A stretch of 36,515 nucleotides of DNA. It comes from Candidatus Chloroploca mongolica (lineage in GTDB: Bacteria; Chloroflexota; Chloroflexia; Chloroflexales; Chloroflexaceae). The position numbers were made by a program, and so were the translations under genes. Positions 7,026-36,304 of this stretch are shown here, one piece after another. The notes under the pieces were generated by a model, which did not search any database, was not told the origin of the DNA, and saw only the letters and a list, made by a program, of their open reading frames with translations. The stretch lies in NCBI RefSeq assembly GCF_004762035.2, contig NZ_SIJK02000052.1:1-36515 (forward strand), given 5' to 3'. Each line of letters starts with the position of its first letter. Position 1 is the first letter of the stretch.

Positions 7026-7763
7026 TTACGCGGTAATGATGGTCATCACTCCGGCAAGTAACGCGAGGCTCATCGCGAGATAGCGGAATCGCGCTGCTGG
7101 CAGCTTGCCACCCAACCGTGTGCCCAGGTGGTTGGCAACGAGGGCGACACTGAGCCACAGCAGCCCCAGCGGCAGCACACTTACGCCTGGCAACCTCCCC
7201 TGCGTCGCCAAAAGGAACAGGGTTGCCGTATTCGTCAGCACAAAAAAGAGCGCCAGTTCGCCCTGAAAGCGACGTGGTGCTGTCTGTTCGCGGGCGAGCA
7301 GCAGCACGGCCGGGATGCCATTCAATGACGTCGTAGCCCCCAGGAACCCCCCGAGCACCCCGGCAAGGGCTGGTGCGCCCGGCACAAGGCGTGCTGGTGG
7401 TCGTCGTGAAGCTTGCCAGATCAGCGCCGTTGCGATGATCACCACAACCCCTGTGACCAGTTTGATGGTTGATGAAGCAACTAACCCCAGGGTCACCAAG
7501 CCAAGCCCGATCCCCGGCACACTCGCCCCAGCCATGATCAACACCCGTTGATAGCGAATATGCTCGCGGAGATGATACGCGACGGCAATGCGCGTGAGCA
7601 GCGCAATGCTCAAGTTGAGGGGCACCAGCAGGGCCAGGGGAAAGCCCAGGACGAGCAAAAAAGGCATACTGACTAGGGCGAACCCAAACCCGCTGATCCC
7701 ACCCAGCAGAGCCGCCCCAAAGACCACGAGCAAAGCGAGGAGTGAAACGCCAACGTCAACCAC
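7026..7763 (-). CDS. TauE/SafE-family membrane permease (sulfite exporter family)
   Basis: A 245-residue polytopic membrane protein of the TauE/SafE (DUF81) family, associated with export or uptake of sulfite, sulfonates and other organic anions. Family features: the N-terminal glycine-rich helix GGISGFGFALVSMPFLLV, the repeated half with GGFLGATTSLNGIPAVLLL, and seven to eight hydrophobic segments. The GTG at 7763 is chosen because GAGAAGGG (7771-7778) lies 7 nt upstream. A longer frame to 7808 would place that Shine-Dalgarno inside the coding region. The substrate cannot be read from sequence. A link to the sulfurtransferase/YeeE module 24 kb away is only thematic. Confidence 0.85.
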   Translation of the reverse strand: MVDVGVSLLALLVVFGAALLGGISGFGFALVSMPFLLVLGFPLALLVPLNLSIALLTRIAVAYHLREHIRYQRVLIMAGASVPGIGLGLVTLGLVASSTIKLVTGVVVIIATALIWQASRRPPARLVPGAPALAGVLGGFLGATTSLNGIPAVLLLAREQTAPRRFQGELALFFVLTNTATLFLLATQGRLPGVSVLPLGLLWLSVALVANHLGTRLGGKLPAARFRYLAMSLALLAGVMTIITA

Positions 7764-7837
7764 ACATTTACCCTTCTCACTGCGTGAGAGTGGCGAAGCA
7801 ACCATCACGTGTAAGGGCCATTATCCGCTCATTTGTA

Positions 7838-19600: not shown

Positions 19601-22600
19601 TATAGAACTCGCCGAGATAGAGTTGGGTTGTGGCATTGTTGGCAGACTGCGTCCTGAATTCAAGCCGATACACTCCGGTTGCCAAGGTCGTGATCGTATA
19701 CTGTCCTGTCGCATCGGTTGCGGTTGTTGCTACCGGATTGCCGCTGGCATTGGAGAGGCGCACGGCGACACCGGCGAGGCCGTCACCGGTATCCGAGGCG
19801 GTGACGCGCCCGCTGATCTGCCCCCCGAGTTGCAGCACCGCATTCGCGGTGACGCTGGCGGGTGGCTCGACTGGGATGGGCGTGGCGGCGCTGAGACTCG
19901 CCTGGTCATCGTAGAATTCCCCGAGATAGAGCGAGTTGAAAGGCGGGCTGAAGCGCAGGTAATACGTTTCGCTGACGAGTCTGGTGAACGTATAGGAGCC
20001 AGTAGCATTCGTATTCTGGCTGGTAACAAATTGCCCGCTCCTATTGTAGAGTTGTACGCTGACATTCGACAAACCGTCACCAGTATCCGAGGCGGTCACG
20101 CGCCCAGTGATCTGCCCACCACGTTGGAGCACGGCATTGGCGGTGACGACGGCGGGTGGGGCGAGTGGAATCGGTGTGGCGGTACTCAAACTCGCGACAT
20201 CATCGTAGTATTCCCCGAGATAGAGCGAGTTGAAGGGCGGGATGAATTGCAGGCGATAGGTGTCTGAGACCAGGGTGGTGAAGGTGTAGTAGCCGGTACT
20301 GCCAGTGGTTCTGCTGGTACTCTGCCCGTTGGCATTGGAGAGGCGCACGGTGATCCCGGCGAGGCCGTCACCGGTATCCGAGGCGGTCACGCGCCCAGTG
20401 ATCTGCCCACCACGTTGGAGCACGGCATTGGCGGTGACGACGGCGGGTGGGGCGAGTGGAATCGGTGTGGCGGTACTCAAACTCGCGACATCATCGTAGT
20501 ATTCCCCGAGATAGAGCGAGTTGAAGGGCGGGCTGAATTCCAACCGATAGGTGTCTGAGAATAACGCGGTAAAGGTGTAGTAGCCGGTGCTGCCCGTGGT
20601 TCGGCTGGTAATCTGCCCGTTGGCATTGGAGAGGCGCACGGTGACGCCAGCGAGACCGTCACCGGTATCTGAGGCGGTCACGCGCCCGCTGATCTGCCCC
20701 CCGAGTTGCAGCACCGCATTGGTGGTGACGACGGCGGGTGGCTCGACCGGGATCGGTGTGGCGCTACTCAAAGTCGCCGCATCATCGTAGAATGCTCCAA
20801 GATAGAGCGAATTGGTGGGCGGGCTGAAGCGCAGACGATAGGTGTCTGAGACGAGCTTTGTGAAGGTGTAGTAGCCGGTGCTGCCCGTAAATGCAGTATC
20901 AATAGACTGCTCGCTGCTGGCATTGTAGAGCTGAACCCTTACATTCGCGAGGCCGTCACCGGTATCTGAGGCGGTGACCCGCCCGCTGATCTGCCCCCCG
21001 AGTTGCAGCACGGCATTGGCGGTGACGACGGCGGGTGGCTCAACCGGGATCGGTGTGGCGCTACTCAAACTCGCCGCATCATCGTAGTATTCCCCGACAT
21101 AGAGCGAGTTGAAGGGTGGGCTGAATTGCAGGCGATAGGTGTCTGAGACGAGGGTGGTAAAGGTGTAGTAGCCGGTGCTGCCAGTGGTTCGGCTGATAAT
21201 AAACTGCCCGTTGGCATTGTAGAGCCGCACGGTGATGCCAGCGAGGCCGTCACCGGTATCTGAGGCGGTGACGCGCCCGCTGATCTGCCCACCGACTTGC
21301 AGCACGGCATTGGCGGTGACGATGGCAGGTGGCTCAACCGGGATGGGCGTGGCGCTACTGAGACTCGTCTGGTCATCATAGAATTCCCCGATATAGGGCG
21401 AGCTGAAGAGCAGGATGAATTGCAGGCGATAGGTGTCTGAGACGAGGGCGGTAAAGGTGTAGTAGCCGGTGCTGCCAGTGGTTCGGCTGGTAATATTTTG
21501 CCCGTTGGCATTGTAGATGAGCACGGTGACCCCGGCGAGGGCTTGACCAGTATCGGCAGCGGTGACTCGCCCGTTAATCTGCCCCCCGAGTTGCAGCACC
21601 GCATTGGCGGTGACGACGGCGGGTGGCTCAACCGGGATCGGTGTGGCGCTACTCAAACTCGCCGCATCATCGTAGTATTCCCCGACATAGAGCGAGTTGA
21701 AGGGTGGGCTGAATTGCAGGCGATAGGTGTCTGAGACGAGGGTGGTAAAGGTGTAGTAGCCGGTGCTGCCAGTGGTTCGGCTGATAATAAACTGCCCGTT
21801 GGCATTGTAGAGCCGCACGGTGATGCCAGCGAGGCCGTCACCGGTATCTGAGGCGGTCACGCGCCCGCTGATCTGCCCACCACGCACCAACGCGGCGTTG
21901 ATCGTTGTGGTAAGTGAGTCGGTGAGGGTAATCGGATCGGCCGTGGCGAACGTGGACTTCTTAGCATAGTATTCGACGAGATAGAGGCGTGTGATCGGAT
22001 CAGTGCTAAATTCTGGAAAGAAACCGACACGATATGTGCCTGCTGCTACATTGGTGATGGTGTAGTACCCAGTCAAACCGGTCGAGCCACCGTCCACAAA
22101 AATCCCATTTGCAGTGTAGATGCCGATGAAGGCATTGTTCAGACCATCACCGCTATCCTCTGCTGTGACGCGCCCAACAAGGCTCGCTGTCTGCTGGGGG
22201 TTGATTGGTGCCTGTTCAATTGCCGAAGCATCTGGTGGGGGTGGCGTTTGTGGAGGTATGGTGGTTGCTGGGGGCGCCTGGGGGGCAGGTTCGTCGCCAA
22301 CTGGGGGTGGCTGGGGAGCAGGTTCGTCGCTGATGGGGGGTGGCTGGGGGGCAGGTTCGTCGCTAGCTGGGGGAGCCTGGGGGGCAGGTTCGTCGCTAGC
22401 TGGGGGGGGTGGTGGATCTGATGCTTGCTCATCGGGTGGAGGCAGGGGACGTGCAGCCGTCAGTTGCACTGGGGTCACATCGCCTGTTTTGACATGCAGC
22501 ACGGGCGTTGAAAGCAGCTCAACCGGCTGTTCACCCGCAAAGAGCTGCAGATCATACAGGCCAGTTGCGAGCCCTGTGAGGCTGAACTGGCCTAGATCCC

Positions 22601-22865
22601 CGGTTTGTGCTGTGGCGACAAGTTCACCTTCGCGCCATACTTGTAAGGTCAACCCTTCGCCAAAACCGCCTTCAGCGTAGAGTACCTGACCACGTACGTA
22701 CTCAAGGAGAGGCTCGGTTCCCGGTTCTTCTGAGCTTTGCCTGGGCGGGGCCGCAGGCTGAGCCGCAACAGGCTGGCTTGGGACTGAGAGAGAGGAGAGG
22801 AGGAGGCTGACGAGGAGAAACCCGACGAGGAGCTTGAAGAACGCACGCACAGAAACCGTTGACAT
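13656..22865 (-). CDS. giant secreted protein with about 28 tandem carboxypeptidase-regulatory-like repeats
   Basis: A 3069-residue predicted surface protein. It has a Sec signal peptide (about 1-35, hydrophobic core LLVGFLLVSLLLSSL, AQPAA end), one isolated CarboxypepD_reg-like domain (about 55-135), and a Pro-rich linker with SDEPAPQ repeats (about 140-215). About 28 tandem beta-sandwich domains of 95-105 residues then run to about residue 3055. Each domain follows the same scheme: GQISGRVTA.DTG.GL..V.V, then TGYYTFT.L..GTYR, a conserved YLGEFYND motif, and a closing ATPI.V..P...T.NA.L..G. The protein ends in GDVFRVLLPLVRR, a hydrophobic-basic tail. There is no LPxTG motif and no C-terminal membrane helix. 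AGGGGA precedes the ATG. An extended stalk or adhesin role is inferred from architecture. N-terminal repeats are nearly identical to each other, C-terminal ones are diverged. Confidence 0.92.
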   Translation of the reverse strand: MSTVSVRAFFKLLVGFLLVSLLLSSLSVPSQPVAAQPAAPPRQSSEEPGTEPLLEYVRGQVLYAEGGFGEGLTLQVWREGELVATAQTGDLGQFSLTGLATGLYDLQLFAGEQPVELLSTPVLHVKTGDVTPVQLTAARPLPPPDEQASDPPPPPASDEPAPQAPPASDEPAPQPPPISDEPAPQPPPVGDEPAPQAPPATTIPPQTPPPPDASAIEQAPINPQQTASLVGRVTAEDSGDGLNNAFIGIYTANGIFVDGGSTGLTGYYTITNVAAGTYRVGFFPEFSTDPITRLYLVEYYAKKSTFATADPITLTDSLTTTINAALVRGGQISGRVTASDTGDGLAGITVRLYNANGQFIISRTTGSTGYYTFTTLVSDTYRLQFSPPFNSLYVGEYYDDAASLSSATPIPVEPPAVVTANAVLQLGGQINGRVTAADTGQALAGVTVLIYNANGQNITSRTTGSTGYYTFTALVSDTYRLQFILLFSSPYIGEFYDDQTSLSSATPIPVEPPAIVTANAVLQVGGQISGRVTASDTGDGLAGITVRLYNANGQFIISRTTGSTGYYTFTTLVSDTYRLQFSPPFNSLYVGEYYDDAASLSSATPIPVEPPAVVTANAVLQLGGQISGRVTASDTGDGLANVRVQLYNASSEQSIDTAFTGSTGYYTFTKLVSDTYRLRFSPPTNSLYLGAFYDDAATLSSATPIPVEPPAVVTTNAVLQLGGQISGRVTASDTGDGLAGVTVRLSNANGQITSRTTGSTGYYTFTALFSDTYRLEFSPPFNSLYLGEYYDDVASLSTATPIPLAPPAVVTANAVLQRGGQITGRVTASDTGDGLAGITVRLSNANGQSTSRTTGSTGYYTFTTLVSDTYRLQFIPPFNSLYLGEYYDDVASLSTATPIPLAPPAVVTANAVLQRGGQITGRVTASDTGDGLSNVSVQLYNRSGQFVTSQNTNATGSYTFTRLVSETYYLRFSPPFNSLYLGEFYDDQASLSAATPIPVEPPASVTANAVLQLGGQISGRVTASDTGDGLAGVAVRLSNASGNPVATTATDATGQYTITTLATGVYRLEFRTQSANNATTQLYLGEFYNDRTSLDTATGISLTAPDLTTIDAVLQRGAELRGRVTGADTGDALQDVTVRLVNANGNTIATVGTNATGNYTFTTLTTGVYRVELITRNAANATTRAYLGQFYNNQRFLELATGINLTVGEFTTVNIPLERGGQISGRVTATDSGAGLAEVAVRVYNATDNVVATVETDATGQYTVPGLSDNAYWVEFDPRGSADQTAQLYVPEFHNKQTNLVAATGVSVVAPDTTSINASLERGAQLTGRVTAADNGTGLEDVTVFVYDETGAMADSGVTTATGNYTITGLISGTYRIGFDPSQSFSVTTQLYAGEFHANKLTLEEATPVTLTAPATTTINAALTLGGELSGRITAADTGNGLRSVRVRLYNTGGSEINTFTSTATGYYTFTGLVTGTYRLEFDTQWFGQATTRLYARAFYDNKATLEEATAISVTAPTTTTVNAVLARGAQLSGRITGADTGNGLANVGVQLYNANGNSIDYIRTTNSGYYTFTGLFTGTYRLELRPQDGFDDTVRSYLRQFYDNKATLAEATGISVTAPTTTTVNAALVRGAQLSGRVTAADTGEGLPSVLVRLYDTNSAFSRSVETTPSGYYTFTTLVTGTYQLEFRTRTSNNATTRAYLGEFYNNQNSAETATPITLNAQDDTTINAELERGAQLTGQVTAEDTSDPLTGVRVLVYDPTSTIIADTTTNSSGNYTTTALASGAYRVEFQTQFANNATTRSYLGEFHANQTSLFNATVITLTAPGITPINAALARGAQITGQVTAGEASPSLAQGADLENVLVAAYPGLDSFSSVASARTDATGTYTLTGLATGAYLIQFGSTGTYLGEWYNDQPDREIADLVSVTAPALTSNINAALQQGGRITGRVTGNDGVGLIGVSVNIYDDCNAFVASTTTNNNGDYLTPVLPAGSYRTYFNPTTTVNRRTREYLPEYYNDKASLETADPIPVAAGGVSANRNAQLTQGGQISGTVTGSGGVPLNLVNVSFYDESGNFISGTQTNEDGTYTSSGLAAGSYGVRFFPSSSNNATTRAHLGTWYNNKATQETADPVNVTANTVTPGINAQLTRGGQISGTVTGEAGMPLGSINVRIYNSEDGTYLTQTFTAVDGTYTTIGLPTGTYKVYFTPNTFISEYVSEWYNNQATEQAADPVAVTNGATSENINAELTYVPYGQISGIVTGEGGAALENIAVQVYIGIDGSFLRQVRTDAEGNYTVPNLPPGAYQLRFSADTLDLQAYLTEWYNDKVNQADADPVSVNPEATTENINANLTRGGQIAGTVTGPDSQPLNGISVQVWTSDDNFVALSSTGNDGTYLTPGLPAGSYKVRFSGTRTYVSEVYNNRIDLAEGDPVAVSLGTVTPAINAQMVVGGTIRGQVLGNSCPLGGVDVLIWTIADPAPRLSDTSAKLVDIASTSSRGYYASFALPAGNYHVEFSTTNSNFPANTFIGEFYNGKTTRETADPVATTAGVATRGINADLQTGGQINGRVTDAISGDGLSSVQVTAMDGNGNPVGSTARTNATGDYTIVGLPTGSYKVFFEPFGSSSGYLPEYYDGKPDQASADPVSVTAPDTTTGIDASLEVAGQIAGQVTDASNGAGLPSVQVRAFNSAGEQVGSMAMTDITGVYTMTDLPTGTYYIFFQPVGVSSKYFAEYYDNKPDLASADPVTVTAAQTTPNINASLASGGQITGRVTAASGGAGLPDVQVQAFDADGNQAGATATTDATGTYTITSLRPGTYRVFFEPAGASSGYFPEYYNDKPDLASADPVTVTASQTTPNINASLASGGQITGRVTAASGGAGLAGVNVRIFDSSGTEVVSTTTTATGTYTTPALSSGDYRVFFEPQGATSAYLPIYYDNKPDLASADVVTVAQSPVENINAALVRGVQFTGRALRASPASLAQVGVANVQVNVLNESGATVAGATTNANGEFTTSPGLTSGTYRVEFVPPLGSGLRSSVTDPITVTVGTPVDPIEQTLEPQGDVFRVLLPLVRR
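21013..21269. repeat. identical repeat unit, copy A
   Basis: These 257 bases are identical to 21601-21857, exactly 588 bp away (two repeat periods of 294 bp). The encoded 98-residue domains 2 and 4 are identical throughout, while domain 3 between them differs at many positions. Confidence 0.9.
21601..21857. repeat. identical repeat unit, copy B
   Basis: Partner of 21013-21269; both include the stretches coding for RLYNANGQFIISRTTGSTG and SPPFNSLYVGEYYDD. The identity points to recent unequal exchange or gene conversion. Confidence 0.9.
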
Positions 22866-27196: not shown

Positions 27197-30100
27197 CTAT
27201 GGCTCTGCTGGGGGCGGGGGTGGCTCTGCTGGGGGCGGGGGCTCCGCTGGGGGCGGGGGGGGCTCCGCTGGGGGCGGGGGTGGCTCCGCTGGGGGCGGGG
27301 ATGGTTCCGCTGGGGGCGGGGGTGGTTCCGCTGGGGGCGGGGATGGTTCCGCTGGGGGTGGGGATGGTTCCGCTGGGGGTGGGGATGGTTCTGGCTGTGG
27401 CTCAGGATCTGGTGCGCGGATGCCCAGGATAATGGCTGTGCCGGGCACGATCCAATCACCGGGGGCGGGGATCGTGCTGACGACTGCATAGGGCACGAAC
27501 TGGTCATAGAGATCGCCAATATAGGTGCGATCCTGATAGTCAACAAAGATGACACTTGCTGGAATGCCCAGGCTTGCCAGAACGCTCTTGGCCTGATTTT
27601 CGCCCAGACGGAGCAGATCGGGCATCAAGACTGCGCCCTCGACGGGGGGTTGCGGGACAGGTGCCTCGAACATCTCGGCACTGCAAGCGGGCAACGCCTC
27701 GACGGCCTGTTTGGTTATGCCTGTGCTCCCACCTTCCCACTCATACCGAACGCGCATACTTGGGTCGGGCGGAGGGGTATTCCAAATGATGATCTCGCGC
27801 TGCAACACGGCAGGATAGGTCAGTTCATCAGAGGGGCGACAGAAGGCTCTTGCGTCGAGCGAGGGTGTGGCCTCTGGATTCGCCGTGTCCAGTTCCGCTG
27901 GTGCCGTGATCAGCAATTGACCATCACTTGACCAGTCTTGTTCCATGGGAACTTGTACCAGCGTGATTCGTTCGAAGGCATCACACGGAATTGACAAGGT
28001 TTCCAGGCTTTGATTGGCAGGCAGTGGTTGACTTGAATCACTCCCCGTTGATGCATTGCGCCGTGCTTCCAGGATGTCAGTCAGCATTTGCCGCGTGAAG
28101 AGTTCTTCGCGGTAGCCACCATACGGGCCCGGAAGTTCACAAATGGGGCGCGACAGGACACCATTGGCGGGCAAGGTAAAGCTTGTCGGGATGACGCCAT
28201 TCGGATAGGGGGCGGCAAAGAGTGCCCGATAACGGGGTTGTTCTTCGATCCAGTCGAACAATTCCTCCATCACATTGCGCCAGATGATGCCACCGCCGGT
28301 GAGGCTTTCTACCCGTTCGGTCGTCTCATTATTATTGTTGCCTGTCCAGACTCCGACCGTGACAAAGGGCGTATAGCCTGCCGCCCATGCATCGCGCCAG
28401 TCGTTAGTTGTTCCGGTCTTGACCGCAGCGGGGAGCGAAAGCTTGAGCGGACTATTGAGCCCCCAGACCGCCTGGCGTGCCCGGTCATCACTCATCATAT
28501 CCGAGATGATCGCCACCAGATTGGGATCAATGACCTCGGTTCCACGATTAGGCAAGAACTCTTCGAGCACATTGCCTGCACTATCGGTAATGCGCAAGAC
28601 TGAGACTGGTTCGTAGTAGCGACCACCGCTTGCGAGGGTATTGTAGGCGGTCGTCAGTTCAAGTGGCGTCACCTCGCCGCCACCCAGGGTCAGCGAGAGG
28701 CCATAGAAATCCTCGCCGCGTTTGAGGCCCTGCTTGATCCCCACGCGATCGAGCAGATCGAGGGTCGCTTGAATACCTGCAAAGCGGAGGGCTTTGACAG
28801 CGGGAATATTGAGTGAATTCGCGAGTGCCGTGCGGATCCGCACCGGGCCATTAAAGCGCCCGTTATAATTCAATGGCGTATACCATGCTCCCGCCCCGCT
28901 CGACGAAGTTGGAAAATCAGTTGGCACATCCCAGATCACCGTCTCGGGATGCATACCCTGTTCCATCGCGGCCAGATAGGTAAAGGGTTTGAGGGCCGAT
29001 CCTGGTTGGCGCTCACGCGTCGCCACATTGACTTGTCCATCGATCACATTGCCCGTTTCACCGACGGTTGTTGTTGCGATAACCGCATCATAGTCAATAC
29101 TCCCGACCATTGCCAGCACCTGGCCGGTGTTGGGTTGCATCACGACCACCGACGCATTGTGAATATTGCGTTCACGCAGATCGGTGATGCGTTCAAACGC
29201 CTTTTGCTGGGCCATGCGCTGCAGATCGAGGTCAAGGGTTGTCGTAATGCGCAACCCACCATTGAAGAGGGCCTGTTGTCCATAGCGCTCTTGCACAAGA
29301 TCGCGCACATAGAAGACAAAATGGGGTGCATTGAGGGGCACTTCCTGGGGGGCAAAGCGCAAGGGTTCGGCGATAGCGGCACGCGCTTCTGCTTCAGTGA
29401 CATATTCGTCCTCGACCATCCGGCGAAGCACAGCCACCTGACGCCAGCGTGGCGGACTAAGGCTTTCGGGCAACTGATAGTCAGCACTGAGCCAGTTTTC
29501 ACCGAGGATAACCCCAGGCAGATACCCACCTTCGCCATCACGGTCGAGGTGATTGATGGGGTTATAGACGGTGGGTAACTGGGGCAATCCGGCGAGCAAC
29601 GAGGCTTGATTGAGGTTGAGATCGCCTGCTCGTATGCCAAAAAAACTTTCGCTAGCAGCCTCAATGCCATAGGCGAGGTTGCCATAGAAGTTCTCGTTCA
29701 GATAGAGCTCAAGCACTTCTTCTTTGGTGAAGAGCTGATCAAGCTCCTGAGCAAGAATGATCTCTTTCATTTTGCGCTCATACCGCCGTTCAGGGGCGCG
29801 CTCTTCGGCGGTCAACACACTATTTTTGATCACCTGCTGACTGATCGTCGAGGCCCCACCGGTCTCTTCACCTGCTTGCAGGCTAGAAATGAGGGTGCGA
29901 ATAATACCACCCAGGTCAACCCCGGGATTGGTAAAGAAGGTCTTGTCTTCAATCGCGACGGTTGCACTGATGAGCAGCGGTGAAACCTCGTCAATCGCGA
30001 CGTTGGTGCGGCGTCCGGCATCAAAAAACTCATAGAGCACTTCGCCATTGCGATCGAAGATCCGTGACGTTTGAAAGAGTTCGCGTTCGGCGAGGGCATC

Positions 30101-30337
30101 AAGGCGAGGCATGAGCGTCGCCGCCGTGCTCGCATAGGCACTATAGGCTAATGAGCCAACGAGCAGGGATACGCCAATGATGCTCAGGAAGATGAACGCG
30201 ATCAGGTTGCCTGCAATATGGGGAAGATACGATGGCTGTTTGGGGGAACGTCGCCCTCGCATCAACCCCGGATAAGCCGGGCGACGAGGGACAGTTCGTC
30301 CACTATAGGTTCGTCGAAAGGAACGATCTCGCTGCAT
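27197..30337 (-). CDS. class A penicillin-binding protein (PBP1A-type) with PASTA domain and Pro-rich tail
   Basis: A 1046-residue bifunctional peptidoglycan synthase. It has a basic cytoplasmic N-terminus and a membrane anchor at about 42-66. The GT51 glycosyltransferase follows, with EDKTFF (catalytic Glu), GGASTISQQVIKN, KEIILAQELDQLFTKEE and LNENFYGN. The transpeptidase has the SxxK motif SALK with Ser447, SLN at 508 and KTGTT with Lys640. After an insertion, one PASTA domain (about 905-970) precedes a tail of about 65 residues made of PPPAEP repeats. It builds and cross-links cell-wall peptidoglycan on the outer face of the membrane. The ATG at 30337 lacks a Shine-Dalgarno. Overlapping frames on the other strand in the tail are shadows of the repeat. 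Confidence 0.93.
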   Translation of the reverse strand: MQRDRSFRRTYSGRTVPRRPAYPGLMRGRRSPKQPSYLPHIAGNLIAFIFLSIIGVSLLVGSLAYSAYASTAATLMPRLDALAERELFQTSRIFDRNGEVLYEFFDAGRRTNVAIDEVSPLLISATVAIEDKTFFTNPGVDLGGIIRTLISSLQAGEETGGASTISQQVIKNSVLTAEERAPERRYERKMKEIILAQELDQLFTKEEVLELYLNENFYGNLAYGIEAASESFFGIRAGDLNLNQASLLAGLPQLPTVYNPINHLDRDGEGGYLPGVILGENWLSADYQLPESLSPPRWRQVAVLRRMVEDEYVTEAEARAAIAEPLRFAPQEVPLNAPHFVFYVRDLVQERYGQQALFNGGLRITTTLDLDLQRMAQQKAFERITDLRERNIHNASVVVMQPNTGQVLAMVGSIDYDAVIATTTVGETGNVIDGQVNVATRERQPGSALKPFTYLAAMEQGMHPETVIWDVPTDFPTSSSGAGAWYTPLNYNGRFNGPVRIRTALANSLNIPAVKALRFAGIQATLDLLDRVGIKQGLKRGEDFYGLSLTLGGGEVTPLELTTAYNTLASGGRYYEPVSVLRITDSAGNVLEEFLPNRGTEVIDPNLVAIISDMMSDDRARQAVWGLNSPLKLSLPAAVKTGTTNDWRDAWAAGYTPFVTVGVWTGNNNNETTERVESLTGGGIIWRNVMEELFDWIEEQPRYRALFAAPYPNGVIPTSFTLPANGVLSRPICELPGPYGGYREELFTRQMLTDILEARRNASTGSDSSQPLPANQSLETLSIPCDAFERITLVQVPMEQDWSSDGQLLITAPAELDTANPEATPSLDARAFCRPSDELTYPAVLQREIIIWNTPPPDPSMRVRYEWEGGSTGITKQAVEALPACSAEMFEAPVPQPPVEGAVLMPDLLRLGENQAKSVLASLGIPASVIFVDYQDRTYIGDLYDQFVPYAVVSTIPAPGDWIVPGTAIILGIRAPDPEPQPEPSPPPAEPSPPPAEPSPPPAEPPPPPAEPSPPPAEPPPPPAEPPPPPAEPPPPAEPPPPPAEP
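27200..27400. repeat. 18-bp tandem repeat coding the PBP Pro-rich tail
   Basis: About eleven units of the type GCTCCGCTGGGGGCGGGG (plus strand) code for PPPAEP hexapeptides. Some units alternate GCTCC/GTTCC and GGGG/GGGT, and one is shortened by three bases. All keep the frame. Such GC-rich arrays slip readily, so length variation is expected. Confidence 0.85.
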
Positions 30338-30497: not shown

Positions 30498-31724
30498 TCA
30501 GACCAGACGGTGCAAGCTGCTTCGGATGCCGAGCCAGACACCAGCAAGCATTGTGAGGCCAAAGAGCCATCCCGAGACGGCAAACGCCGAGATGCCCGAA
30601 AGCAGGGTGCCGACGGTGCAACCGAGCGCGACCATGGCCCCCCATCCCTGCAAAATGCCACCAACCAGGGCGCTGCCGGCCCCGCGCATGGTAAGCCGGT
30701 CGGGTTGAAAGCGGTTGGCGAGCAAGGCGGCGGTGAGTGACCCGAGCACCAAGCCGGAGATGAGCAGGCCATTGGCGGTAATGGTCTGCACCACCTGGGT
30801 GGCACAGCCCGCCAGCCGATCTAGCCCAAAGAGCGTTGTTGGGAGCAGCCCGACCTGATCCATGCCTGTTCGCGCAAGGCTGCCGAGTTGCGATGTTACC
30901 CCAAGTGGTTCAATGCGCATGTAGGCGACGGTGCCCAGCAACCCCACTAGGGCACCTGTGACGAGGGCAGGCCAGCGCTGGTGGAAGAGAACCGCCCACA
31001 CACCCGCCAGATCAAAACGTTGCGCCGGGCGGGGTGGCAACTCGGGCACGTTGCGGAGCAACAAGAAGGCGATGCCTCCCAAAAGAACGAGTTGGAGGAA
31101 GAGCGCACCTCCATACCCAAGACGTGCGGGCAACCAGATCACTGGCGCATCAGCAATCGTTGCGAGATAGAGCTGATTCCAGCTCAGGAAGCCTAGCCCA
31201 AAGCCGGCAAGCACACCAAGCAATGCCACAGGTGCCCGCGTTGAACCCTCACCAAGCCGATAGAGATGCCCGCTGACACACGCCCCCGACAGGGCCATGC
31301 CAAGCCCAAAGGCCAGGCCACCCGCCGCGAGAACCCAGCTAACTGGGCCAATATGGGCCTCGGGAGGTAGGCGTCCACTGAAGGGGTTCGGCAAAAAGAT
31401 CCCGAAGACCAGCGTATAACCGATTGAACCGGCGGCCAGGGCGGCAAGGATGGCATACACCGGACCAGTGTTGCGAAACTCGATCCAGTCCCGCAAGATG
31501 CAAAAATAGCAAAAACGGCCCCGCTGAAAGACAAAGCCGAGACTCGCACCGAGCAGCAACGAAAGCGCTGCCGTTGCGCCGCGTCCAGGGGTAGCGTGGA
31601 GCCAGTAGGCTGTGCTCGTCAACCCGATGAGCAGTGCAACGGCGAGACCGAGGCGTACGCCAGTGGTGCGTGCGAGCCTCTGGAATGGTTGCCGATCAGC
31701 CCGTGTTGAAGGAAGCTCAGTCAT
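30498..31724 (-). CDS. YeeE/YedE-family sulfur transporter (TsuA-like)
   Basis: A 408-residue membrane protein of the YeeE/YedE (DUF395) family, whose characterised member TsuA takes up thiosulfate. About ten hydrophobic segments form two homologous halves. The conserved cysteines that relay thiosulfate in this family are present: GRFCYFCILRD, SGACVSGHLYRLGEG, LAGCATQ and LGCTVGTLLSGI. The gene follows the lipoprotein sulfurtransferase by 61 nt in the same direction and probably shares its transcript. An AGGTG about 11 nt before the ATG is a weak Shine-Dalgarno. Thiosulfate or another sulfane-sulfur compound is the likely substrate, by family and neighbour. Confidence 0.88.
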   Translation of the reverse strand: MTELPSTRADRQPFQRLARTTGVRLGLAVALLIGLTSTAYWLHATPGRGATAALSLLLGASLGFVFQRGRFCYFCILRDWIEFRNTGPVYAILAALAAGSIGYTLVFGIFLPNPFSGRLPPEAHIGPVSWVLAAGGLAFGLGMALSGACVSGHLYRLGEGSTRAPVALLGVLAGFGLGFLSWNQLYLATIADAPVIWLPARLGYGGALFLQLVLLGGIAFLLLRNVPELPPRPAQRFDLAGVWAVLFHQRWPALVTGALVGLLGTVAYMRIEPLGVTSQLGSLARTGMDQVGLLPTTLFGLDRLAGCATQVVQTITANGLLISGLVLGSLTAALLANRFQPDRLTMRGAGSALVGGILQGWGAMVALGCTVGTLLSGISAFAVSGWLFGLTMLAGVWLGIRSSLHRLV

Positions 31725-31785
31725 AGATCGTGTTCACCTGGGTAGAGCACCAGGGCCAGCCATGCTGACCCTGGTTGCCCGGCGA

Positions 31786-32796
31786 TTATTGGGCGCCCCA
31801 CACGGTGCCACTCGGATTGGCAATCGGAACCCCAATCGTATTGCCCCACTCGGTCCACGAGCCATCATAGACGGCAACCTCGTAGCCGAGGATCTGGCTC
31901 AAGACGAACCAGGTGTGGCTGGCGCGCTCGCCAATTCGGCAATAGGTGATAATTGGCTGGCTGCCATCGATGCCCAGACCAGCATAGAGGCTCTGCAACT
32001 CATCAACCGACTTGAAGGTACCATCTTCATTGAGGGCTTGCTTCCAGGGGATATTGATCGCACCTGGAATATGGCCTGCCCGGATTGCCAACTCTTGAAA
32101 GCCCTCGGGGGCAAAGATCTTGCCTGAGAACTCATCAGCCGATCGGATGTCGATCAGTGAGGCGGTTGTTGTGCCCTCAACAACTGCTAAGACATCAGGC
32201 AATCTGGCACGCAGACTCTCGCGGTGCGCAACGGTGAAATCGCCAGCCGCGACGCTCGGCACGGTTACCGACAACTCGCGTCCCTCGGCCTCCCACTTGG
32301 CGCGGCTACCATCGAGCAGGCGCACATCATTGGCCCCGTACTGCAGAAAGATCCAAGCCCCCCAGGCGGCAAACCAGTTGCTATTATCGCCATAGAGGAC
32401 AACCGTCGTATCCTGGTTAATGCCGGCTGTGCGGGCGAGTTGCTCGAAGCGGTCAGGCGCAACAATATCCCGATTAACCGTATCGACAAAATCGGTGTGC
32501 CAGACAAAGTTCACTGCCCCCGGAATGTGGCCCCGCTCGTAGAGTCCTGGAACAACACTGACCTCAATCACCCGCACCTGCGGATTATCCAGGTTTGCGG
32601 CCAGCCACTCGGTGCTCACCAGAGCCTGCTCGGGTCCGCGTGCGCCCAGTTCGGTGCCTTGCGCAGGGACAGGCACCGCAGCAACAGGCGCTGCCGCAGG
32701 TGTTTGGGCAGTCGAGCATCCCGCCAGCACGATCACCAGGGCCACCAGAACAACCAGCATCAGACCATTGCCACGTGAAACGACAGGCGTATGCAT
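31786..32796 (-). CDS. lipoprotein two-domain rhodanese (thiosulfate/3-mercaptopyruvate sulfurtransferase)
   Basis: A 336-residue exported sulfurtransferase. The N-terminal signal ends in the lipobox VLAGC, with lipidation expected at Cys27; an Ala/Pro linker follows. Two rhodanese domains come next: an inactive first one (with RGHIPGAVNFVWHTDF and DGSRAKWEAEG) and a second with the active loop TYCRIGERAS, catalytic Cys286. The two-domain layout and the CRIGERA loop are typical of thiosulfate/mercaptopyruvate sulfurtransferases. AAGGAG upstream serves either the ATG at 32796 (9 nt) or the GTG at 32799 (6 nt). Anchored on the outer membrane face, it can act on external thiosulfate or polysulfide next to the cotranscribed YeeE/YedE transporter. 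Confidence 0.92.
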   Translation of the reverse strand: MHTPVVSRGNGLMLVVLVALVIVLAGCSTAQTPAAAPVAAVPVPAQGTELGARGPEQALVSTEWLAANLDNPQVRVIEVSVVPGLYERGHIPGAVNFVWHTDFVDTVNRDIVAPDRFEQLARTAGINQDTTVVLYGDNSNWFAAWGAWIFLQYGANDVRLLDGSRAKWEAEGRELSVTVPSVAAGDFTVAHRESLRARLPDVLAVVEGTTTASLIDIRSADEFSGKIFAPEGFQELAIRAGHIPGAINIPWKQALNEDGTFKSVDELQSLYAGLGIDGSQPIITYCRIGERASHTWFVLSQILGYEVAVYDGSWTEWGNTIGVPIANPSGTVWGAQ

Positions 32797-32919: not shown

Positions 32920-32948
32920 GGGTAAAATTACCCTAGTCGACTGACTAG
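32920..32948. promoter_or_regulatory. paired dyads in the divergent control region
   Basis: GGGTAA-AA-TTACCC (32920-32933) is followed directly by CTAGTC-GACT-GACTAG (32933-32948). A further GGGTAA half-site is at 32896-32901. The dyads lie midway between the divergent sulfurtransferase operon and the two-component operon, where a shared regulator could bind. No binding protein can be named. Confidence 0.45.
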
Positions 32949-33015: not shown

Positions 33016-33044
33016 GCGTATGCTACAGGCATGAGGTGGAGCCT

Positions 33045-33416
33045 ATGAATGCCCTCCCAATGCGCCAGATTCTCCTCGCCGACGACCAGGCCAGTGTCCG
33101 TGATGCGTTGCGGCTACGTCTTGAGCAAGAACCCAACTTTGCGATTGTGGGCGAAGCAGTCGATGCCACTGGTTTGCTGCTGCTGGTTGCCGAGTGCGCT
33201 GCCGAGCTTGTGCTGCTCGATTGGGAACTGCCCGGTCTTCCCCCGAACCATCTTGTGCGGCTGCTATACGCCGAGCAACCGGGTCTCAAAATCGTTGCGA
33301 TGAGCAGTCGCCCCGAGGCCCATCAGCCAGCTTTGCAGGCCGGAGCTACGGCCTTTCTCAGCAAAGGTGCCCCCCCAGAAGATCTGCTCAAGACTTTGGT
33401 CTCACTGAGAGGATGA
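33045..33416 (+). CDS. single-domain response regulator (receiver only)
   Basis: A 123-residue receiver domain without an output domain. The acidic pair is in ILLADDQASV, the phosphoacceptor Asp in LVLLDWELPG, the conserved Ser in IVAMSSRPEA and the Lys in AFLSKGAPP. It can take a phosphoryl group and signal by protein contact. GAGG at 33033-33036, 8 nt before the ATG at 33045, supports the start; a GTG at 33036 overlaps that Shine-Dalgarno. It stands directly before the sensor kinase gene (27 nt) and the NarL-type regulator, so it probably competes for or modulates the phosphoryl flow of the same kinase. Confidence 0.88.
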   Translation: MNALPMRQILLADDQASVRDALRLRLEQEPNFAIVGEAVDATGLLLLVAECAAELVLLDWELPGLPPNHLVRLLYAEQPGLKIVAMSSRPEAHQPALQAGATAFLSKGAPPEDLLKTLVSLRG

Positions 33417-33443
33417 ATCCCCATTGATCTTCTGCCTCAGGAC

Positions 33444-35660
33444 ATGTACCATAGGGGCATGAGTGAGCAGCAGCATATGCTTGAAATCTTCTTTGATCAG
33501 ATGCCAATGGGCATTGCGCTTCTCGATTGCGACCTGCGCCTACGCCGGTTCAATCCGACGCTGATCGAATTTGTCCGCCGCTACAGTTCCTTGCCAACGG
33601 AACAGGTTGGGCAGGGAACGTCGTTTCTCGATCTGCTGCCGGGCAATGAAGCCTCAGCCCGTGCCATCTTTTTGCGTGCGCTTGCGGGCGAGACCGTGTA
33701 TCAAGAAGCCTTCCCGTTGACAATTAATGGCCGCGTCTCATACTGGGACTCGGTCTCGGCTCCGCTTTACCATGAGGCGACGATTGTTGGGATTGTGCAT
33801 GTCACGACGAGTGTGACCGAGCGTGTGCTGGCTGAGCAAGAGTTGCAGAAGACCCTGGACCGCCTGCGGCATCATGTAACTTTCGAACAGATTATCACGA
33901 CGCTCTCGAATAGCTTTATCAATATGCCGCCTGATCAGATTGATCAGGGCATTCGACAGGCTCTCCAGACACTTGGCACCTTTACCCAGGCTGATCGCGC
34001 CTATATTTTTCTCTACAGTGATGATGCAACGTCGCTCTCGTGCATCCAGGAATGGTGCGCCGAGGGGATCGAAGCGCAGATCTACCGCTTGCAGGGCCTG
34101 TCCACTGCGAACCTTGCCTGGTCAAACCGGCAGCTCTTGCAACGTCAGATCCTGCATATTCCCTGGGTTGACCAACTTCCACCTGAGGCAGCCGTTGAAC
34201 AGCGTGAATTCACCAGCCAGGGCATCAAGTCGTTGCTCGCGGTGCCGATGACCTACCAAGAGCGGGTCGTTGGTCTCTTGGGTTTTGATGCGGTACGTCA
34301 GAAAAAGACCTGGGCCGAGCTTGATATCTCGGTGCTGCATGTTGTTGGCGAGATGCTGATCAATGCGCTCGAACACAAACGCTCACGGGCGGCCCTTTAC
34401 GAGGCGAATCGCCTGCTCGAGCAGCGGGTTGCCGAACGCACCTATGAGCTTGAGCAACGCAATCAGGAACTCGAGCGGAGGCGGCAGGTAGCCGAAGGTC
34501 TGCGTGAGATCCTGGTGCGGCTCAACGCCGAGCATGCCCTACCGCAGTTGCTGGATGCGATTGTTGCGCAGGCCGATCAGTTGATTGCCAGCGATGTCGT
34601 CGCGCTCTATCTATTACATGAAGAGCAGCAGACGTTGACGATCCAGGCCTTGCGTGGTGAATTGCCCCCCGAAGTGCGGCAGGTCACATTGCCATCAGGG
34701 GTAGGCACAATTGGTCGTGTGGTGGCCTTGCGGCAGATGATGATTGTGCCCGATGTGCGTCAGTTGGACATTCGCACGGTCGAGGCGGTACGTGCCGAGT
34801 CGCTTGCCGCCACCGAGGGCATCCTGATTGACCCCGACCGCCTTGAAGCGTTGAAAGCCTTGTTGCAACGCTTTCGTGCGGTGCTCGCCTTGCCCCTGGT
34901 TGCCCAGGATGTCGCCTATGGCGGGTTGGCCTTTTACTACCGGGAGCCACGTACCTTTACCGAGGAAGAGATCAATCTGGCCTCACTCTTTGCTGACCAG
35001 GCGGCCCTAGCGTTGCAGAATGCGCGTCTGCGTGATAAAGCCGAACAGATAGCCGTCATGGCTGAACGGAATCGGCTCGCCCGCGAATTGCATGATGCCG
35101 TAACCCAGACCCTCTTTTCGGCGAGCCTGATTGCCGATGTGCTGCCCCGGATCTGGGAACGCAACCCTGTTGTTGGCGAGGCAAAACTGGCTGAATTGCG
35201 CGAATTGACGCGCGGCGCACTCGCCGAAATGCGCACCCTCTTGCTCGAATTGCGTCCAGCGACGCTGACCGAGAGCAACCTTGATGAACTGCTGCACCAA
35301 CTTGCCGCAGCCTTCGTCGGACGGTCGCGCTTGCAGATAACCGTTGAAGTTGTAGGTGAAGCAGAGCGGCGACTGCCGCCCGAGATCCAGGTGGCGCTCT
35401 ACCGCATTGCCCAGGAAGCGCTGAATAATGTGGTCAAACACGCCAATGCCTCGCACGCCGTTCTGACGCTCACCTTTACGCCTGGGCATGTGGTGCTCAC
35501 GGTACAAGACAATGGCCGTGGTTTTGATGCGACCACCGTGAGTAGTCATTCACTTGGTCTTGGCATTATGCGCGAGCGTGCCGCCAAAATTGGGGCGAGG
35601 CTAGAGATGACGAGTCGGATCGGAGGGGGAACCAGGATCGCGGTTGACGTTCTTACCTGA
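33444..35660 (+). CDS. NarL-group sensor histidine kinase with PAS and two GAF domains
   Basis: A 738-residue soluble sensor kinase. Domains in order: PAS (about 10-125), GAF (about 150-305), a coiled coil (about 310-350, LLEQRVAERTYELEQRNQEL), a second GAF (about 355-530), then the HisKA_3 dimerisation domain with RLARELHDAVTQTLF (phospho-His at about 550). The HATPase domain follows, with EALNNVVKHA, VQDNGRGF and LGLGIMRERA. No membrane segment is seen, so it senses an internal or diffusible signal; a possible tetrapyrrole or small-molecule ligand cannot be read. HisKA_3 kinases pair with NarL-type regulators, as encoded next. The start is uncertain: ATGs at 33444, 33459 and 33477 all lack a good Shine-Dalgarno. 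Confidence 0.92.
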   Translation: MYHRGMSEQQHMLEIFFDQMPMGIALLDCDLRLRRFNPTLIEFVRRYSSLPTEQVGQGTSFLDLLPGNEASARAIFLRALAGETVYQEAFPLTINGRVSYWDSVSAPLYHEATIVGIVHVTTSVTERVLAEQELQKTLDRLRHHVTFEQIITTLSNSFINMPPDQIDQGIRQALQTLGTFTQADRAYIFLYSDDATSLSCIQEWCAEGIEAQIYRLQGLSTANLAWSNRQLLQRQILHIPWVDQLPPEAAVEQREFTSQGIKSLLAVPMTYQERVVGLLGFDAVRQKKTWAELDISVLHVVGEMLINALEHKRSRAALYEANRLLEQRVAERTYELEQRNQELERRRQVAEGLREILVRLNAEHALPQLLDAIVAQADQLIASDVVALYLLHEEQQTLTIQALRGELPPEVRQVTLPSGVGTIGRVVALRQMMIVPDVRQLDIRTVEAVRAESLAATEGILIDPDRLEALKALLQRFRAVLALPLVAQDVAYGGLAFYYREPRTFTEEEINLASLFADQAALALQNARLRDKAEQIAVMAERNRLARELHDAVTQTLFSASLIADVLPRIWERNPVVGEAKLAELRELTRGALAEMRTLLLELRPATLTESNLDELLHQLAAAFVGRSRLQITVEVVGEAERRLPPEIQVALYRIAQEALNNVVKHANASHAVLTLTFTPGHVVLTVQDNGRGFDATTVSSHSLGLGIMRERAAKIGARLEMTSRIGGGTRIAVDVLT

Positions 35661-35671
35661 TGGAGGAGCCT

Positions 35672-36304
35672 ATGGAACCAATTCGTGTCATGATCGTTGA
35701 CGACCATGCGGTTGTCCGAAGTGGCCTGGCCGCTTTTTTACTCGCCTATGACGACCTCGAACTGGTTGCCGAGGCTGATAGTGGTCATACAGCGCTTGCG
35801 TTGTGCCAGGAGCAGATGCCTGACGTCATCCTGATGGATCTGGTGATGCCTGAGATGGATGGGGCTGCCACCACGCGCGCGATCAAAGCGCGTTATCCCC
35901 AGATTCAGGTGGTAGCCCTGACCAGCTTTCGCGAGGATGAACTGGTGCAAGGCGCCTTGCAGGCCGGGGCTATTGGCTACCTGCTCAAAAATATCAGTGC
36001 CAATCAACTTGCCGACGCCATTCGCGCCGCACATGGTGGGCGCCCAACGCTCGATCCCGAAGCAACGCGTGTCCTTATGGAAGCAGCGCGCAAACCCGCC
36101 GAAATCCACTTTGACCTGACGCCTCGCGAACAAGAGGTTCTGGTGCTGGTAACCCATGGCGCAAACAATGGCGAAATTGCCGCCAAATTACGGATCAGCC
36201 AGTCAACCGTCAAATATCATGTGAGCAGCATTCTGGCGAAACTCGGAGCCAGCAGCCGCACCGAAGCCGCTATGCTTGCGGTTCAGCACCGGCTTGTGCC
36301 GTAA
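35672..36304 (+). CDS. NarL/FixJ-family response regulator
   Basis: A 210-residue transcription regulator. The receiver domain has VMIVDDHAVV, the phosphoacceptor Asp in VILMDLVMPEMDG, the Thr in VVALTSF and Lys in GYLLKNISA. A LuxR-type helix-turn-helix follows, with LTPREQEVLVLVTHGANNGEIAAKL and ISQSTVKYHVSSILAKLG (about 145-200). GGAGG 5 nt before the ATG at 35672 selects this start over the ATG at 35660, which overlaps the kinase stop (TGATG). The tight coupling makes it the direct partner of the kinase. Its targets are unknown; the palindromes at 32.9 kb are candidates for autoregulation. Confidence 0.94.
   Translation: MEPIRVMIVDDHAVVRSGLAAFLLAYDDLELVAEADSGHTALALCQEQMPDVILMDLVMPEMDGAATTRAIKARYPQIQVVALTSFREDELVQGALQAGAIGYLLKNISANQLADAIRAAHGGRPTLDPEATRVLMEAARKPAEIHFDLTPREQEVLVLVTHGANNGEIAAKLRISQSTVKYHVSSILAKLGASSRTEAAMLAVQHRLVP

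What the first reader, a model, noticed from the sequence alone, without database searches (positions are those of the whole stretch)
30498..32796. External lipoprotein sulfurtransferase coupled to a thiosulfate-type transporter
A lipid-anchored two-domain rhodanese with an intact CRIGERA loop is cotranscribed with a YeeE/YedE protein keeping its cysteine relay. The pair could process sulfur compounds outside and hand them to the channel. Rhodanese partners of this family are usually cytoplasmic, so the outside location is notable.
Basis: partly seen in the sequence, partly recalled or inferred. Interest (0 to 1): 0.65.

Follow-up and report, generated by a model that had tools for sequence, protein, structure and literature searches.

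The report
Exported sulfur-transfer enzyme paired with transporter
A sulfur-handling enzyme that sits outside the cell membrane is encoded next to a membrane transporter, and the same two-gene pair recurs in many distant bacteria, so it looks like an unnamed device for catching sulfur outside the cell and bringing it in.

Summary
Observation confirmed. In a Candidatus Chloroploca-type genome, a two-domain rhodanese with an LAGC lipobox and intact CRIGERA loop lies 61 bp upstream, same strand, of a 408-aa YeeE/YedE protein. The pairing is not a local oddity: of the 80 closest YeeE relatives returned by one genome scan (229 found), all 77 with upstream sequence carry a rhodanese homologue there (71 within 150 bp). 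All 73 of those with a complete N-terminus have an export-type hydrophobic segment; none of 13 comparison paralogues does. The lipid anchor is only one solution: a strict lipobox occurs in 8 of 73; most others have signal-peptide-like N-termini. The exported rhodaneses form their own clade (one divergent row excepted), have the active-site Cys as the only Cys of the catalytic region and mostly end in a GTxWG tail. Their YeeEs share a clade-specific Cys75 and no TusA was found beside them. A second YeeE clade carries TusA, and in 8 of 18 loci a lipoprotein rhodanese. Most likely the module captures sulfane sulfur outside and imports it for cytoplasmic TusA; chemistry and contact are inferred. 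Precedents exist (SoxT model; Desulfurivibrio lipoprotein sulfurtransferases near YeeE), so this is a new variant of a known kind.

The parts
31786..32796 (-). exported two-domain rhodanese (thiosulfate-sulfurtransferase-like), lipoprotein precursor, 336 aa from ATG
   Evidence: best solved relative Thermus-type rhodanese 1uar, E 2.7e-87 (organism recalled)
32716..32796 (-). lipoprotein-type signal peptide, lipobox LAGC with C27 at 32716-32718
   Evidence: sequence; lipobox in 7 of 10 intact family orthologues
32284..32616 (-). rhodanese domain 1 (no Cys)
   Evidence: PF00581
31840..32163 (-). rhodanese domain 2 (carries the active-site loop)
   Evidence: PF00581
31921..31941 (-). active-site loop C286-R-I-G-E-R-A; the only Cys of the catalytic region
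   Evidence: YCRIGER invariant in 22 of 22 aligned; one Cys in 73 of 73 regions counted
31795..31809 (-). C-terminal tail motif G330-T-V-W-G, seen only in YeeE-paired exported rhodaneses of this clade
   Evidence: 73 of 77 paired, 0 of 13 comparison paralogues, 0 of 8 second-clade rhodaneses
30498..31724 (-). YeeE/YedE-family transporter, 408 aa, with an N-terminal helix (residues 12-44) outside the part matched to TsuA
31509..31511 (-). YeeE Cys72 (aligned with the first TsuA cysteine)
   Evidence: invariant
31500..31502 (-). YeeE Cys75, clade-specific (RGRFC-[YF]-F-C)
   Evidence: Cys in 46 of 46 of this clade, 0 of 20 other Chloroflexota YeeE
31278..31280 (-). YeeE Cys149 (aligned with the second TsuA cysteine)
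30804..30806 (-). YeeE Cys307, invariant in this clade, also Cys in 18 of 18 other Chloroflexota YeeE that have a residue there
30618..30620 (-). YeeE Cys369 (aligned with the third TsuA cysteine)

Best explanation
The two genes encode a sulfur-capture-and-import module. The rhodanese is exported and, in this genus, tethered by a lipid on its N-terminal Cys27 through an ~30-residue linker to the outer face of the membrane (inferred from the lipobox). Outside, its Cys286 takes the sulfane sulfur from thiosulfate, polysulfide or a low-molecular persulfide (inferred from the rhodanese family). It then presents this sulfur, as enzyme persulfide or as a small persulfide or polysulfide, to the YeeE encoded beside it, perhaps docking through the GTxWG tail (inferred). 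YeeE passes it inward by way of its invariant cysteines (Cys72, the clade-specific Cys75, Cys149, Cys307, Cys369) (inferred from TsuA and SoxT). In the cytoplasm a TusA-type carrier accepts it (inferred); in this genome the one TusA found is encoded apart, beside DsrE2-like, rhodanese and rhodanese-metallo-beta-lactamase (persulfide-dioxygenase-like) genes. Shown here: conserved order and adjacency, export-type N-termini, own clade, motif and cysteine conservation, fold. Not shown: substrate, direction, physical contact.
For: A rhodanese upstream on the same strand in 77 of 77 testable loci, 71 of them within 150 bp, from Chloroflexota, Actinomycetota and Pseudomonadota. Export-type N-terminus, with a start codon in reach, in 73 of 73 complete ones against 0 of 13 comparison paralogues. 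29 of 30 sampled paired rhodaneses form one clade (SH-aLRT 98) apart from the cytosolic ones; the exception is the divergent, long-branch L128. Paired YeeEs are one clade (99); the two trees correlate over 29 taxa (L128 left out), r = 0.775, 0 of 2000 permutations as high. One catalytic Cys in 73 of 73 and GTxWG tail in 73 of 77. Five invariant YeeE Cys, Cys75 clade-specific. A second YeeE clade has TusA beside it in 18 of 18 loci and a lipoprotein-type rhodanese in 8 of these, with a different loop (CQTxVRA) and order, i.e. outside rhodanese, YeeE and TusA in one run of genes. TusA is present in all 13 family genomes with the pair or a piece of it, and in 18 of the other 28. Literature, passages read: periplasmic PspE converts thiosulfate to sulfane sulfur that reaches the cytoplasm by an unknown route (PMC10215317); YedE1E2 imports zero-valent sulfur and needs conserved Cys (PMC10812762); SoxT model with a periplasmic thiol-redox donor (PMC11582611).
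Against: No biochemical data. No TusA found in any of the 80 window-type loci, unlike TsuA and unlike the second clade. The SoxT paper notes that relay cysteines about 7 A apart make direct atom hand-over questionable. The tree correlation can arise from shared descent of one operon alone. The pair is patchy within the family (10 of 41 intact), so it is dispensable. Three Anaerolineae loci have a second, apparently cytosolic rhodanese next to YeeE, which would also fit an inside acceptor role for rhodaneses. Co-location would also fit two proteins that merely share a substrate.
Confidence: 0.55

Rival explanations
1. YeeE imports thiosulfate itself, as TsuA does, and the outside rhodanese makes that thiosulfate from sulfite and sulfane sulfur (reverse rhodanese reaction).
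For: TsuA is the only close solved fold, Z 35, with the three relay Cys kept; the cable-bacteria paper proposes periplasmic rhodanese promoting thiosulfate formation and thiosulfate entering via YeeE (PMC13047784, passages).
Against: No TsuB/YeeD-type partner found next to any of the 80 loci; TsuA equivalog models score 69.4 and 77.9 bits against cut-offs of 645 and 400; the extra Cys75 is unexplained.
Confidence: 0.2
2. The two only share a substrate: the rhodanese detoxifies or disproportionates thiosulfate, cyanide or polysulfide outside, YeeE independently imports a sulfur anion as nutrient.
For: Co-location alone does not show transfer; 8 of 10 intact-pair family genomes, all three Chloroploca among them, lack a strong PAPS-reductase hit, so they may need reduced sulfur.
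Against: Adjacency and order across phyla, a dedicated rhodanese clade with its own tail, and joint decay in G027 are more than a shared substrate needs. The PAPS-reductase pattern is weak: 17 of 28 pair-less family genomes lack a strong hit too, and 10 of 13 named pair-bearing genomes searched have one.
Confidence: 0.15
3. A selenium or tellurium oxyanion system, as for YedE (selenium) and ExtH.
For: Weak profile resemblance: ExtH 90.9 bits, selenium YedE/FdhT 122.7 bits.
Against: All far under the curated cut-offs (200 and 350; TIGR04112 44.2 of 200). Neighbouring genes were not screened for selenium genes.
Confidence: 0.04
4. The module runs outward: YeeE releases sulfane sulfur and the outside rhodanese disposes of it (sulfur deposition outside the filament).
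For: From general knowledge, filamentous anoxygenic phototrophs can deposit sulfur outside; nothing in the sequence fixes direction.
Against: The characterised relatives in the passages read (TsuA, SoxT, YedE1E2) are importers; the pair also occurs in freshwater actinobacteria, which are not known as sulfide oxidisers (recalled).
Confidence: 0.06

Closest known systems
TsuA-TsuB (YeeE-YeeD) thiosulfate importer, PDB 6leo, 8j4c, 8k1r
   Same: Fold (Z 33-35, 293-303 residues), PF04143, three relay Cys
   Different: 25-26% identity, extra N-terminal helix, extra Cys75, no TsuB/TusA found beside it, an outside rhodanese instead
SoxT1A/SoxT1B YeeE-like transporters with periplasmic DsbA/SoxS donor (PMC11582611, passages)
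   Same: Proposed logic: outside donor protein, YeeE-type channel, inside sulfurtransferase
   Different: There the donor is a thioredoxin-like protein fed by SoxYZ and the rhodanese (Rhd442) is cytoplasmic; here the rhodanese is outside
Desulfurivibrio dismutans lipoprotein sulfurtransferases RS12800/RS05165 co-localised with YeeE/YedE (PMC12142623, passages)
   Same: Secreted sulfurtransferases, predicted lipoproteins, co-localised with YeeE/YedE, and a similar proposed hand-over
   Different: Sulfur disproportionator with a porin in the cluster; relation to the window's clade not tested here (sequences not compared)
PspE and YnjE, periplasmic rhodaneses of E. coli (PMC10215317, passages)
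   Same: Exported rhodanese; PspE makes sulfane sulfur from thiosulfate outside
   Different: The transport step is called unknown in that account and YeeE/YedE is not mentioned there; PspE is single-domain (recalled)
ExtH of Geobacter (NF040901; PMC5877670, passages)
   Same: Rhodanese-like protein, 90.9 bits over residues 12-331
   Different: Under its cut-off of 200; its cluster as described holds porin and cytochromes, no YeeE named
Cytosolic CRIGER rhodaneses (CysA/SseA type, label recalled; G000 paralogue at C65)
   Same: 49% identity, same loop CRIGER
   Different: No export signal, no GTxWG tail; G000's copy is on another contig than YeeE

Membership tests
YeeE/YedE family (PF04143) | profile match over the gathering score | tested here: met
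   179.1 bits, cut-off 27
YeeE/YedE family (PF04143) | TsuA-like fold and relay cysteines | tested here: met
   Z 35.2 to 8k1r; C72, C149, C369 invariant in 46 of 46
TsuA thiosulfate transporter (equivalog) | NCBIfam cut-offs NF041049 / NF052577 | tested here: not met
   69.4 of 645 and 77.9 of 400 bits
TsuA thiosulfate transporter (equivalog) | TsuB/YeeD (TusA-like) encoded next to it | tested here: not met
   no TusA hit in any of 80 window-type loci with two single-sequence queries; flanks are short in some loci
TsuA thiosulfate transporter (equivalog) | thiosulfate uptake | not testable with these tools
   needs an assay
selenium YedE (TIGR04112, NF033796) | curated cut-off | tested here: not met
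   44.2 of 200 and 122.7 of 350 bits
two-domain rhodanese / thiosulfate sulfurtransferase | two PF00581 domains, active-site Cys in domain 2 | tested here: met
two-domain rhodanese / thiosulfate sulfurtransferase | sulfurtransferase activity and donor | not testable with these tools
   needs an assay
3-mercaptopyruvate sulfurtransferase (NF008557) | equivalog cut-off | tested here: not met
   148.1 of 250 bits
ExtH (NF040901) | equivalog cut-off | tested here: not met
   90.9 of 200 bits
bacterial lipoprotein | lipobox after an N-terminal hydrophobic stretch | tested here: met
   LAGC27
bacterial lipoprotein | lipobox conserved among orthologues | tested here: not met
   7 of 10 intact orthologues in the family, absent in the 3 of genus g4; strict lipobox in 8 of 73 of the wide set
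bacterial lipoprotein | lipidation of Cys27 | not testable with these tools
   needs labelling or globomycin test
YTD cluster (sulfur disproportionation) | yedE, tusA, dsrE, chp genes together | tested here: not met
   window neighbours are a penicillin-binding protein and a two-component system; no TusA found in the 80 loci

The most novel reading that the evidence does not exclude
The exported rhodanese and its YeeE form a dedicated protein-to-protein sulfur relay across the membrane: the rhodanese persulfide docks by its GTxWG tail on the outer mouth of YeeE and hands a sulfur atom, not an anion, to the clade-specific Cys75/Cys72 pair, making this an import channel for protein-bound sulfur shared by Chloroflexota, freshwater Actinomycetota and Pseudomonadota.
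Probability: 0.25. Interest if true: 0.75.

Novelty: new variant of a known kind. Interest (0 to 1): 0.5.

Why it matters
How sulfane sulfur made or found outside the cell gets in is called unknown or poorly understood in two of the papers read (PMC10215317, PMC11582611, passages). A module in which an outside sulfurtransferase always travels with the transporter gives a clean genetic handle: two genes, a marked active-site cysteine, a candidate docking tail and a clade-specific transporter cysteine. It is found in phototrophic Chloroflexota, in freshwater actinobacteria and in Pseudomonadota with cultured strains, so it can be tested without the window organism. Its presence in genomes with and without strong PAPS-reductase hits argues that it is not just a substitute for sulfate assimilation.

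Tried and rejected
Lipid anchoring as the key feature: dropped, because genus g4 (with Chloroflexus islandicus), Roseiflexus and most wider members lack a strict lipobox. Sulfur-assimilation substitute: the PAPS-reductase survey shows no clean pattern; I took hits above 110 bits as strong, and the ~300-aa PF01507 hits may be CysD rather than CysH (recalled sizes), which I did not separate. YTD cluster membership: rejected. Selenium/tellurium role: curated cut-offs missed. Fusion of rhodanese and YeeE: no reading frame of the 80 loci gives hits to both. Recurrent third gene: of the 28 largest ORF clusters printed, those beyond YeeE and rhodanese reach at most 10 of 80 loci, apart from one of 13 loci that looks like antisense frames of the pair; that ORF picker also missed some true genes, so this is a rough look and functions were not assigned. 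The two-component genes that face the pair are there in the three Chloroploca genomes; other loci were not checked for them, though L054 and L081 hold a response regulator of the same cluster. Promoter/terminator scan uninformative.

Rows set aside before counts: L087, L089, L104 have no sequence upstream of YeeE (80 to 77). L073, L091, L126 have the rhodanese cut by the contig end and L123 has it split over two frames (77 to 73 for the N-terminus count; L123's upstream piece does carry a hydrophobic N-terminus). L124 is also split but its N-terminus was readable. L128 is divergent (CGTG loop, 200 bits), sits outside the clade and was left out of the tree correlation. The Cys count (73) took regions over 380 bits. 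Of 229 relatives found by the scan only the best 80 were returned, and the scan patterns themselves include the RGRFC[FY]FC and AHIGP motifs, so '77 of 77' and 'Cys75 invariant' are for the nearest part of the family. Six of the 77 gaps exceed 150 bp, up to 641 bp in L125. Several record titles are metagenome bins with doubtful names (Bacteroidetes, Pleurocapsa, Bifidobacterium breve). The comparison set of 13 paralogues is 12 rhodaneses from family genomes with no YeeE beside them plus L087, which does lie near a truncated YeeE, on the opposite strand; in the tree L087, L055, L060 and L068 bear the label 'no_YeeE_neighbour' wrongly: all four lie downstream of a YeeE on the opposite strand. 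The N-terminal score was taken on read-through frames; one search repeats it with a start codon required within 30 residues and gives the same 73 of 73, and no comparison paralogue above 0.67 (five had no such start before the domain stretch long enough, one was too short). The rhodanese tree used 30 of the 77 paired rhodaneses and is a quick SH-aLRT tree; the YeeE tree warns of long branches meeting at L129. In the second clade I counted the 18 full-length YeeEs with 145-197 bits to the window protein; L145 (108 bits) has neither TusA nor rhodanese, and L137's contig ends about 1 kb past YeeE. Five PF04143 places under the cut-off were not fetched.

Literature limits: only open-access papers are held. 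17 papers hold both 'YeeE' and 'rhodanese'; I read passages in 10 of them (PMC11582611, PMC13047784, PMC10952691, PMC10812762, PMC8780430, PMC12142623, PMC12997753, PMC12545173, PMC4809877, PMC6501319) and saw only listings of the other 7. None of the passages describes this conserved pair. Passages of PMC9751629, PMC12998232, PMC10215317, PMC6180586 and PMC5877670 were also read; no paper was read whole. The TsuA structure paper was not held.
Full report
What is there. The window is contig C108 of a 6.3-Mb genome. Its nearest named relatives are Candidatus Chloroploca sp. Khr17 and Ca. C. asiatica (95% YeeE identity), so it is very probably a Chloroploca. On the minus strand, a 336-aa protein (ATG at 32796; a GTG lies one codon upstream) is followed after 61 bp by a 408-aa protein ending at 30498. 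The first has two rhodanese domains, a lipobox LAGC27 and the loop C286-RIGERA; the second is a YeeE/YedE protein, the only PF04143 match in the genome.

Is the pair conserved? In 41 genomes of the same family, close orthologues of both genes are adjacent and intact in 10 (G000, G014, G015; G025, G026; G008, G010, G011; G021, G022). In G027 both are decayed: the rhodanese keeps only its C-terminal half and YeeE has lost an internal stretch (a draft assembly, so an error is possible). G023 shows a piece of YeeE and G029 a piece of the rhodanese, each at a contig end. G024, of the same genus as G025-G027, has neither. So the two genes come and go together. In a scan of 84,980 species genomes with the YeeE alignment, the best 80 of 229 loci were returned, by title from Chloroflexota (36), Actinomycetota (30), Pseudomonadota (11) and one each Bacteroidota, Cyanobacteriota and unplaced; some titles are metagenome bins with doubtful names. 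In 77 of 80 there is sequence upstream of YeeE, and in 77 of 77 a rhodanese homologue lies upstream on the same strand; the median distance to the YeeE match is 70 bp and 71 of 77 are within 150 bp.

Inside or outside? All 73 of these rhodaneses whose N-terminus is complete have a hydrophobic segment before the first domain (12-residue Kyte-Doolittle mean 1.84 or more) with a start codon in reach. Of 13 comparison rhodaneses of the CRIGER type, none scores above 0.67 when a start codon is required. The way of anchoring varies: a strict lipobox in 8 of 73 (L049, L050, L057, L074, L080, L082, L083, L128; L076 and L084 borderline), a hydrophobic N-terminus without a lipobox Cys in Chloroflexus and Roseiflexus, signal-peptide-like N-termini in most others. 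These calls are by eye, hydropathy and regular expression, not by a signal-peptide predictor.

A dedicated subfamily. In a tree of 54 rhodaneses, 29 of the 30 sampled paired ones form one clade (SH-aLRT 98), next to but apart from 13 cytosolic CRIGER ones (99); the thirtieth, L128, has a very long branch. All 73 regions counted have exactly one Cys, the active-site one. 73 of 77 end in a GTxWG tail; it is missing from L100, L123, L124 and L128 (the first three have near-forms), from 13 of 13 comparison paralogues and from 8 of 8 second-clade rhodaneses. On the YeeE side the 30 sampled partners form one clade (99). Five cysteines are invariant in 46 of 46. Cys75 is Cys in 46 of 46 here and in 0 of 20 other Chloroflexota YeeEs, while Cys72, Cys149, Cys307 and Cys369 are shared wherever those have a residue; the Cys75 motif was among the scan patterns, so its invariance is partly a selection effect. 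Distances in the two trees correlate (r = 0.775, 29 taxa, 0 of 2000 permutations as high), which common descent of the operon would also give.

A second, separate case. Of 221 Chloroflexota genomes, 49 have a PF04143 match. I fetched 47 places, i.e. all over the cut-off that were not already in hand. Eighteen full-length YeeEs of a second clade (145-197 bits to the window protein) all have a TusA gene just downstream, and 8 of these 18 have, after TusA, a two-domain rhodanese with a lipobox or Tat-type lipobox (by eye) and the loop CQT[AG]VRA. These rhodaneses fall outside the window's clade. One more place, L148, is window-type. In the other 28 places, mostly split half-length YeeEs, the paired-rhodanese profile finds no rhodanese within the up to 3 kb fetched on each side. 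So an outside rhodanese is tied to YeeE in two arrangements, one of which includes TusA. That the two rhodanese groups were recruited separately is likely but rests on a quick tree. In three Anaerolineae loci (L055, L060, L068) a further rhodanese without export signal faces YeeE from downstream.

Fold. The YeeE model (mean pLDDT 83.3, pTM 0.84) matches TsuA/YeeE structures at Z 33-35 over 293-303 residues, with the next fold at Z 5.9. Residues 12-44 form an N-terminal helix outside the matched range.

Where the sulfur would go. One TusA was found in the genome; TusA is likewise present in all 13 family genomes with the pair or a piece of it and in 18 of the other 28. In this genome it lies between a DsrE2-like gene and a rhodanese-metallo-beta-lactamase gene, near a single-domain rhodanese and a SulP permease, a typical cytoplasmic sulfane-sulfur set (from general knowledge). 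A strong PAPS-reductase hit is missing in 8 of the 10 intact-pair genomes, but also in 17 of the 28 genomes without the pair, and 10 of 13 named pair-bearing genomes searched have one.

How it most likely works. The rhodanese takes sulfane sulfur outside on Cys286 and gives it, directly or as a small persulfide, to the YeeE, which passes it in by way of its cysteines to a TusA-type carrier. The parts and their genomic coupling are shown; donor, transported species, direction and contact are inferred. The main rival, that the rhodanese makes thiosulfate which YeeE imports, has been proposed for periplasmic rhodaneses of cable bacteria.

Known or new. The idea of an outside donor for a YeeE-type channel is in print for SoxT (DsbA or SoxS as donor, rhodanese inside), and lipoprotein sulfurtransferases co-localised with YeeE/YedE are in print for Desulfurivibrio dismutans. 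I found no description of the conserved exported-rhodanese/YeeE pair as a family in the open-access library (searches; 10 of the 17 joint papers opened at passages). Hence: new variant of a known kind.

Noticed in passing
L133, L134, L135, L138, L139, L143, L146, L147 (Chloroflexota): A second YeeE clade with TusA and a lipoprotein-type rhodanese (loop CQT[AG]VRA) downstream: a run of genes that holds outside donor, channel and inside acceptor together.
   Followed up: partly
L136 and L149, downstream of YeeE-TusA: Where no rhodanese was found, a protein with a Tat-like lipoprotein N-terminus and propeller-like repeats follows (by eye); role unknown.
   Followed up: no
L055, L060, L068 (Anaerolineae), minus strand just downstream of YeeE: A second rhodanese without export signal faces YeeE, so these loci hold an outside and an apparent inside rhodanese.
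   Followed up: no
window 33036-36304 (+): Facing the pair: a receiver-only response regulator, a PAS/GAF HisKA_3 kinase and a NarL-type regulator, next to the pair in 3 of 3 Chloroploca genomes; candidate regulator of the pair.
   Followed up: partly
window 32933-32948: Perfect inverted repeat CTAGTC-AGTC-GACTAG in the divergent intergenic region, kept in C. asiatica but altered in Khr17.
   Followed up: partly
L044 (G027): Both genes of the pair are decayed in one draft genome: rhodanese lacks its N-terminal half, YeeE has an internal deletion.
   Followed up: yes
L176:3263-8378 (G000 C116): SulP permease, single-domain rhodanese, DsrE2-like protein, TusA and rhodanese-metallo-beta-lactamase protein in one cluster.
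   Followed up: partly
window 7026-7808 (-): TauE/SafE-type (sulfite exporter family) membrane protein on the same contig.
   Followed up: no
window 13656-22865 (-): A 3069-aa protein with 25 carboxypeptidase-regulatory-like and 16 SdrD B-like stretches (overlapping families).
   Followed up: no
window 27197-30337 (-): Class A penicillin-binding protein with a weak PASTA-like stretch and a long proline-rich repeat tail; its length differs between Chloroploca genomes (1033, 1039 and 1046 aa).
   Followed up: no
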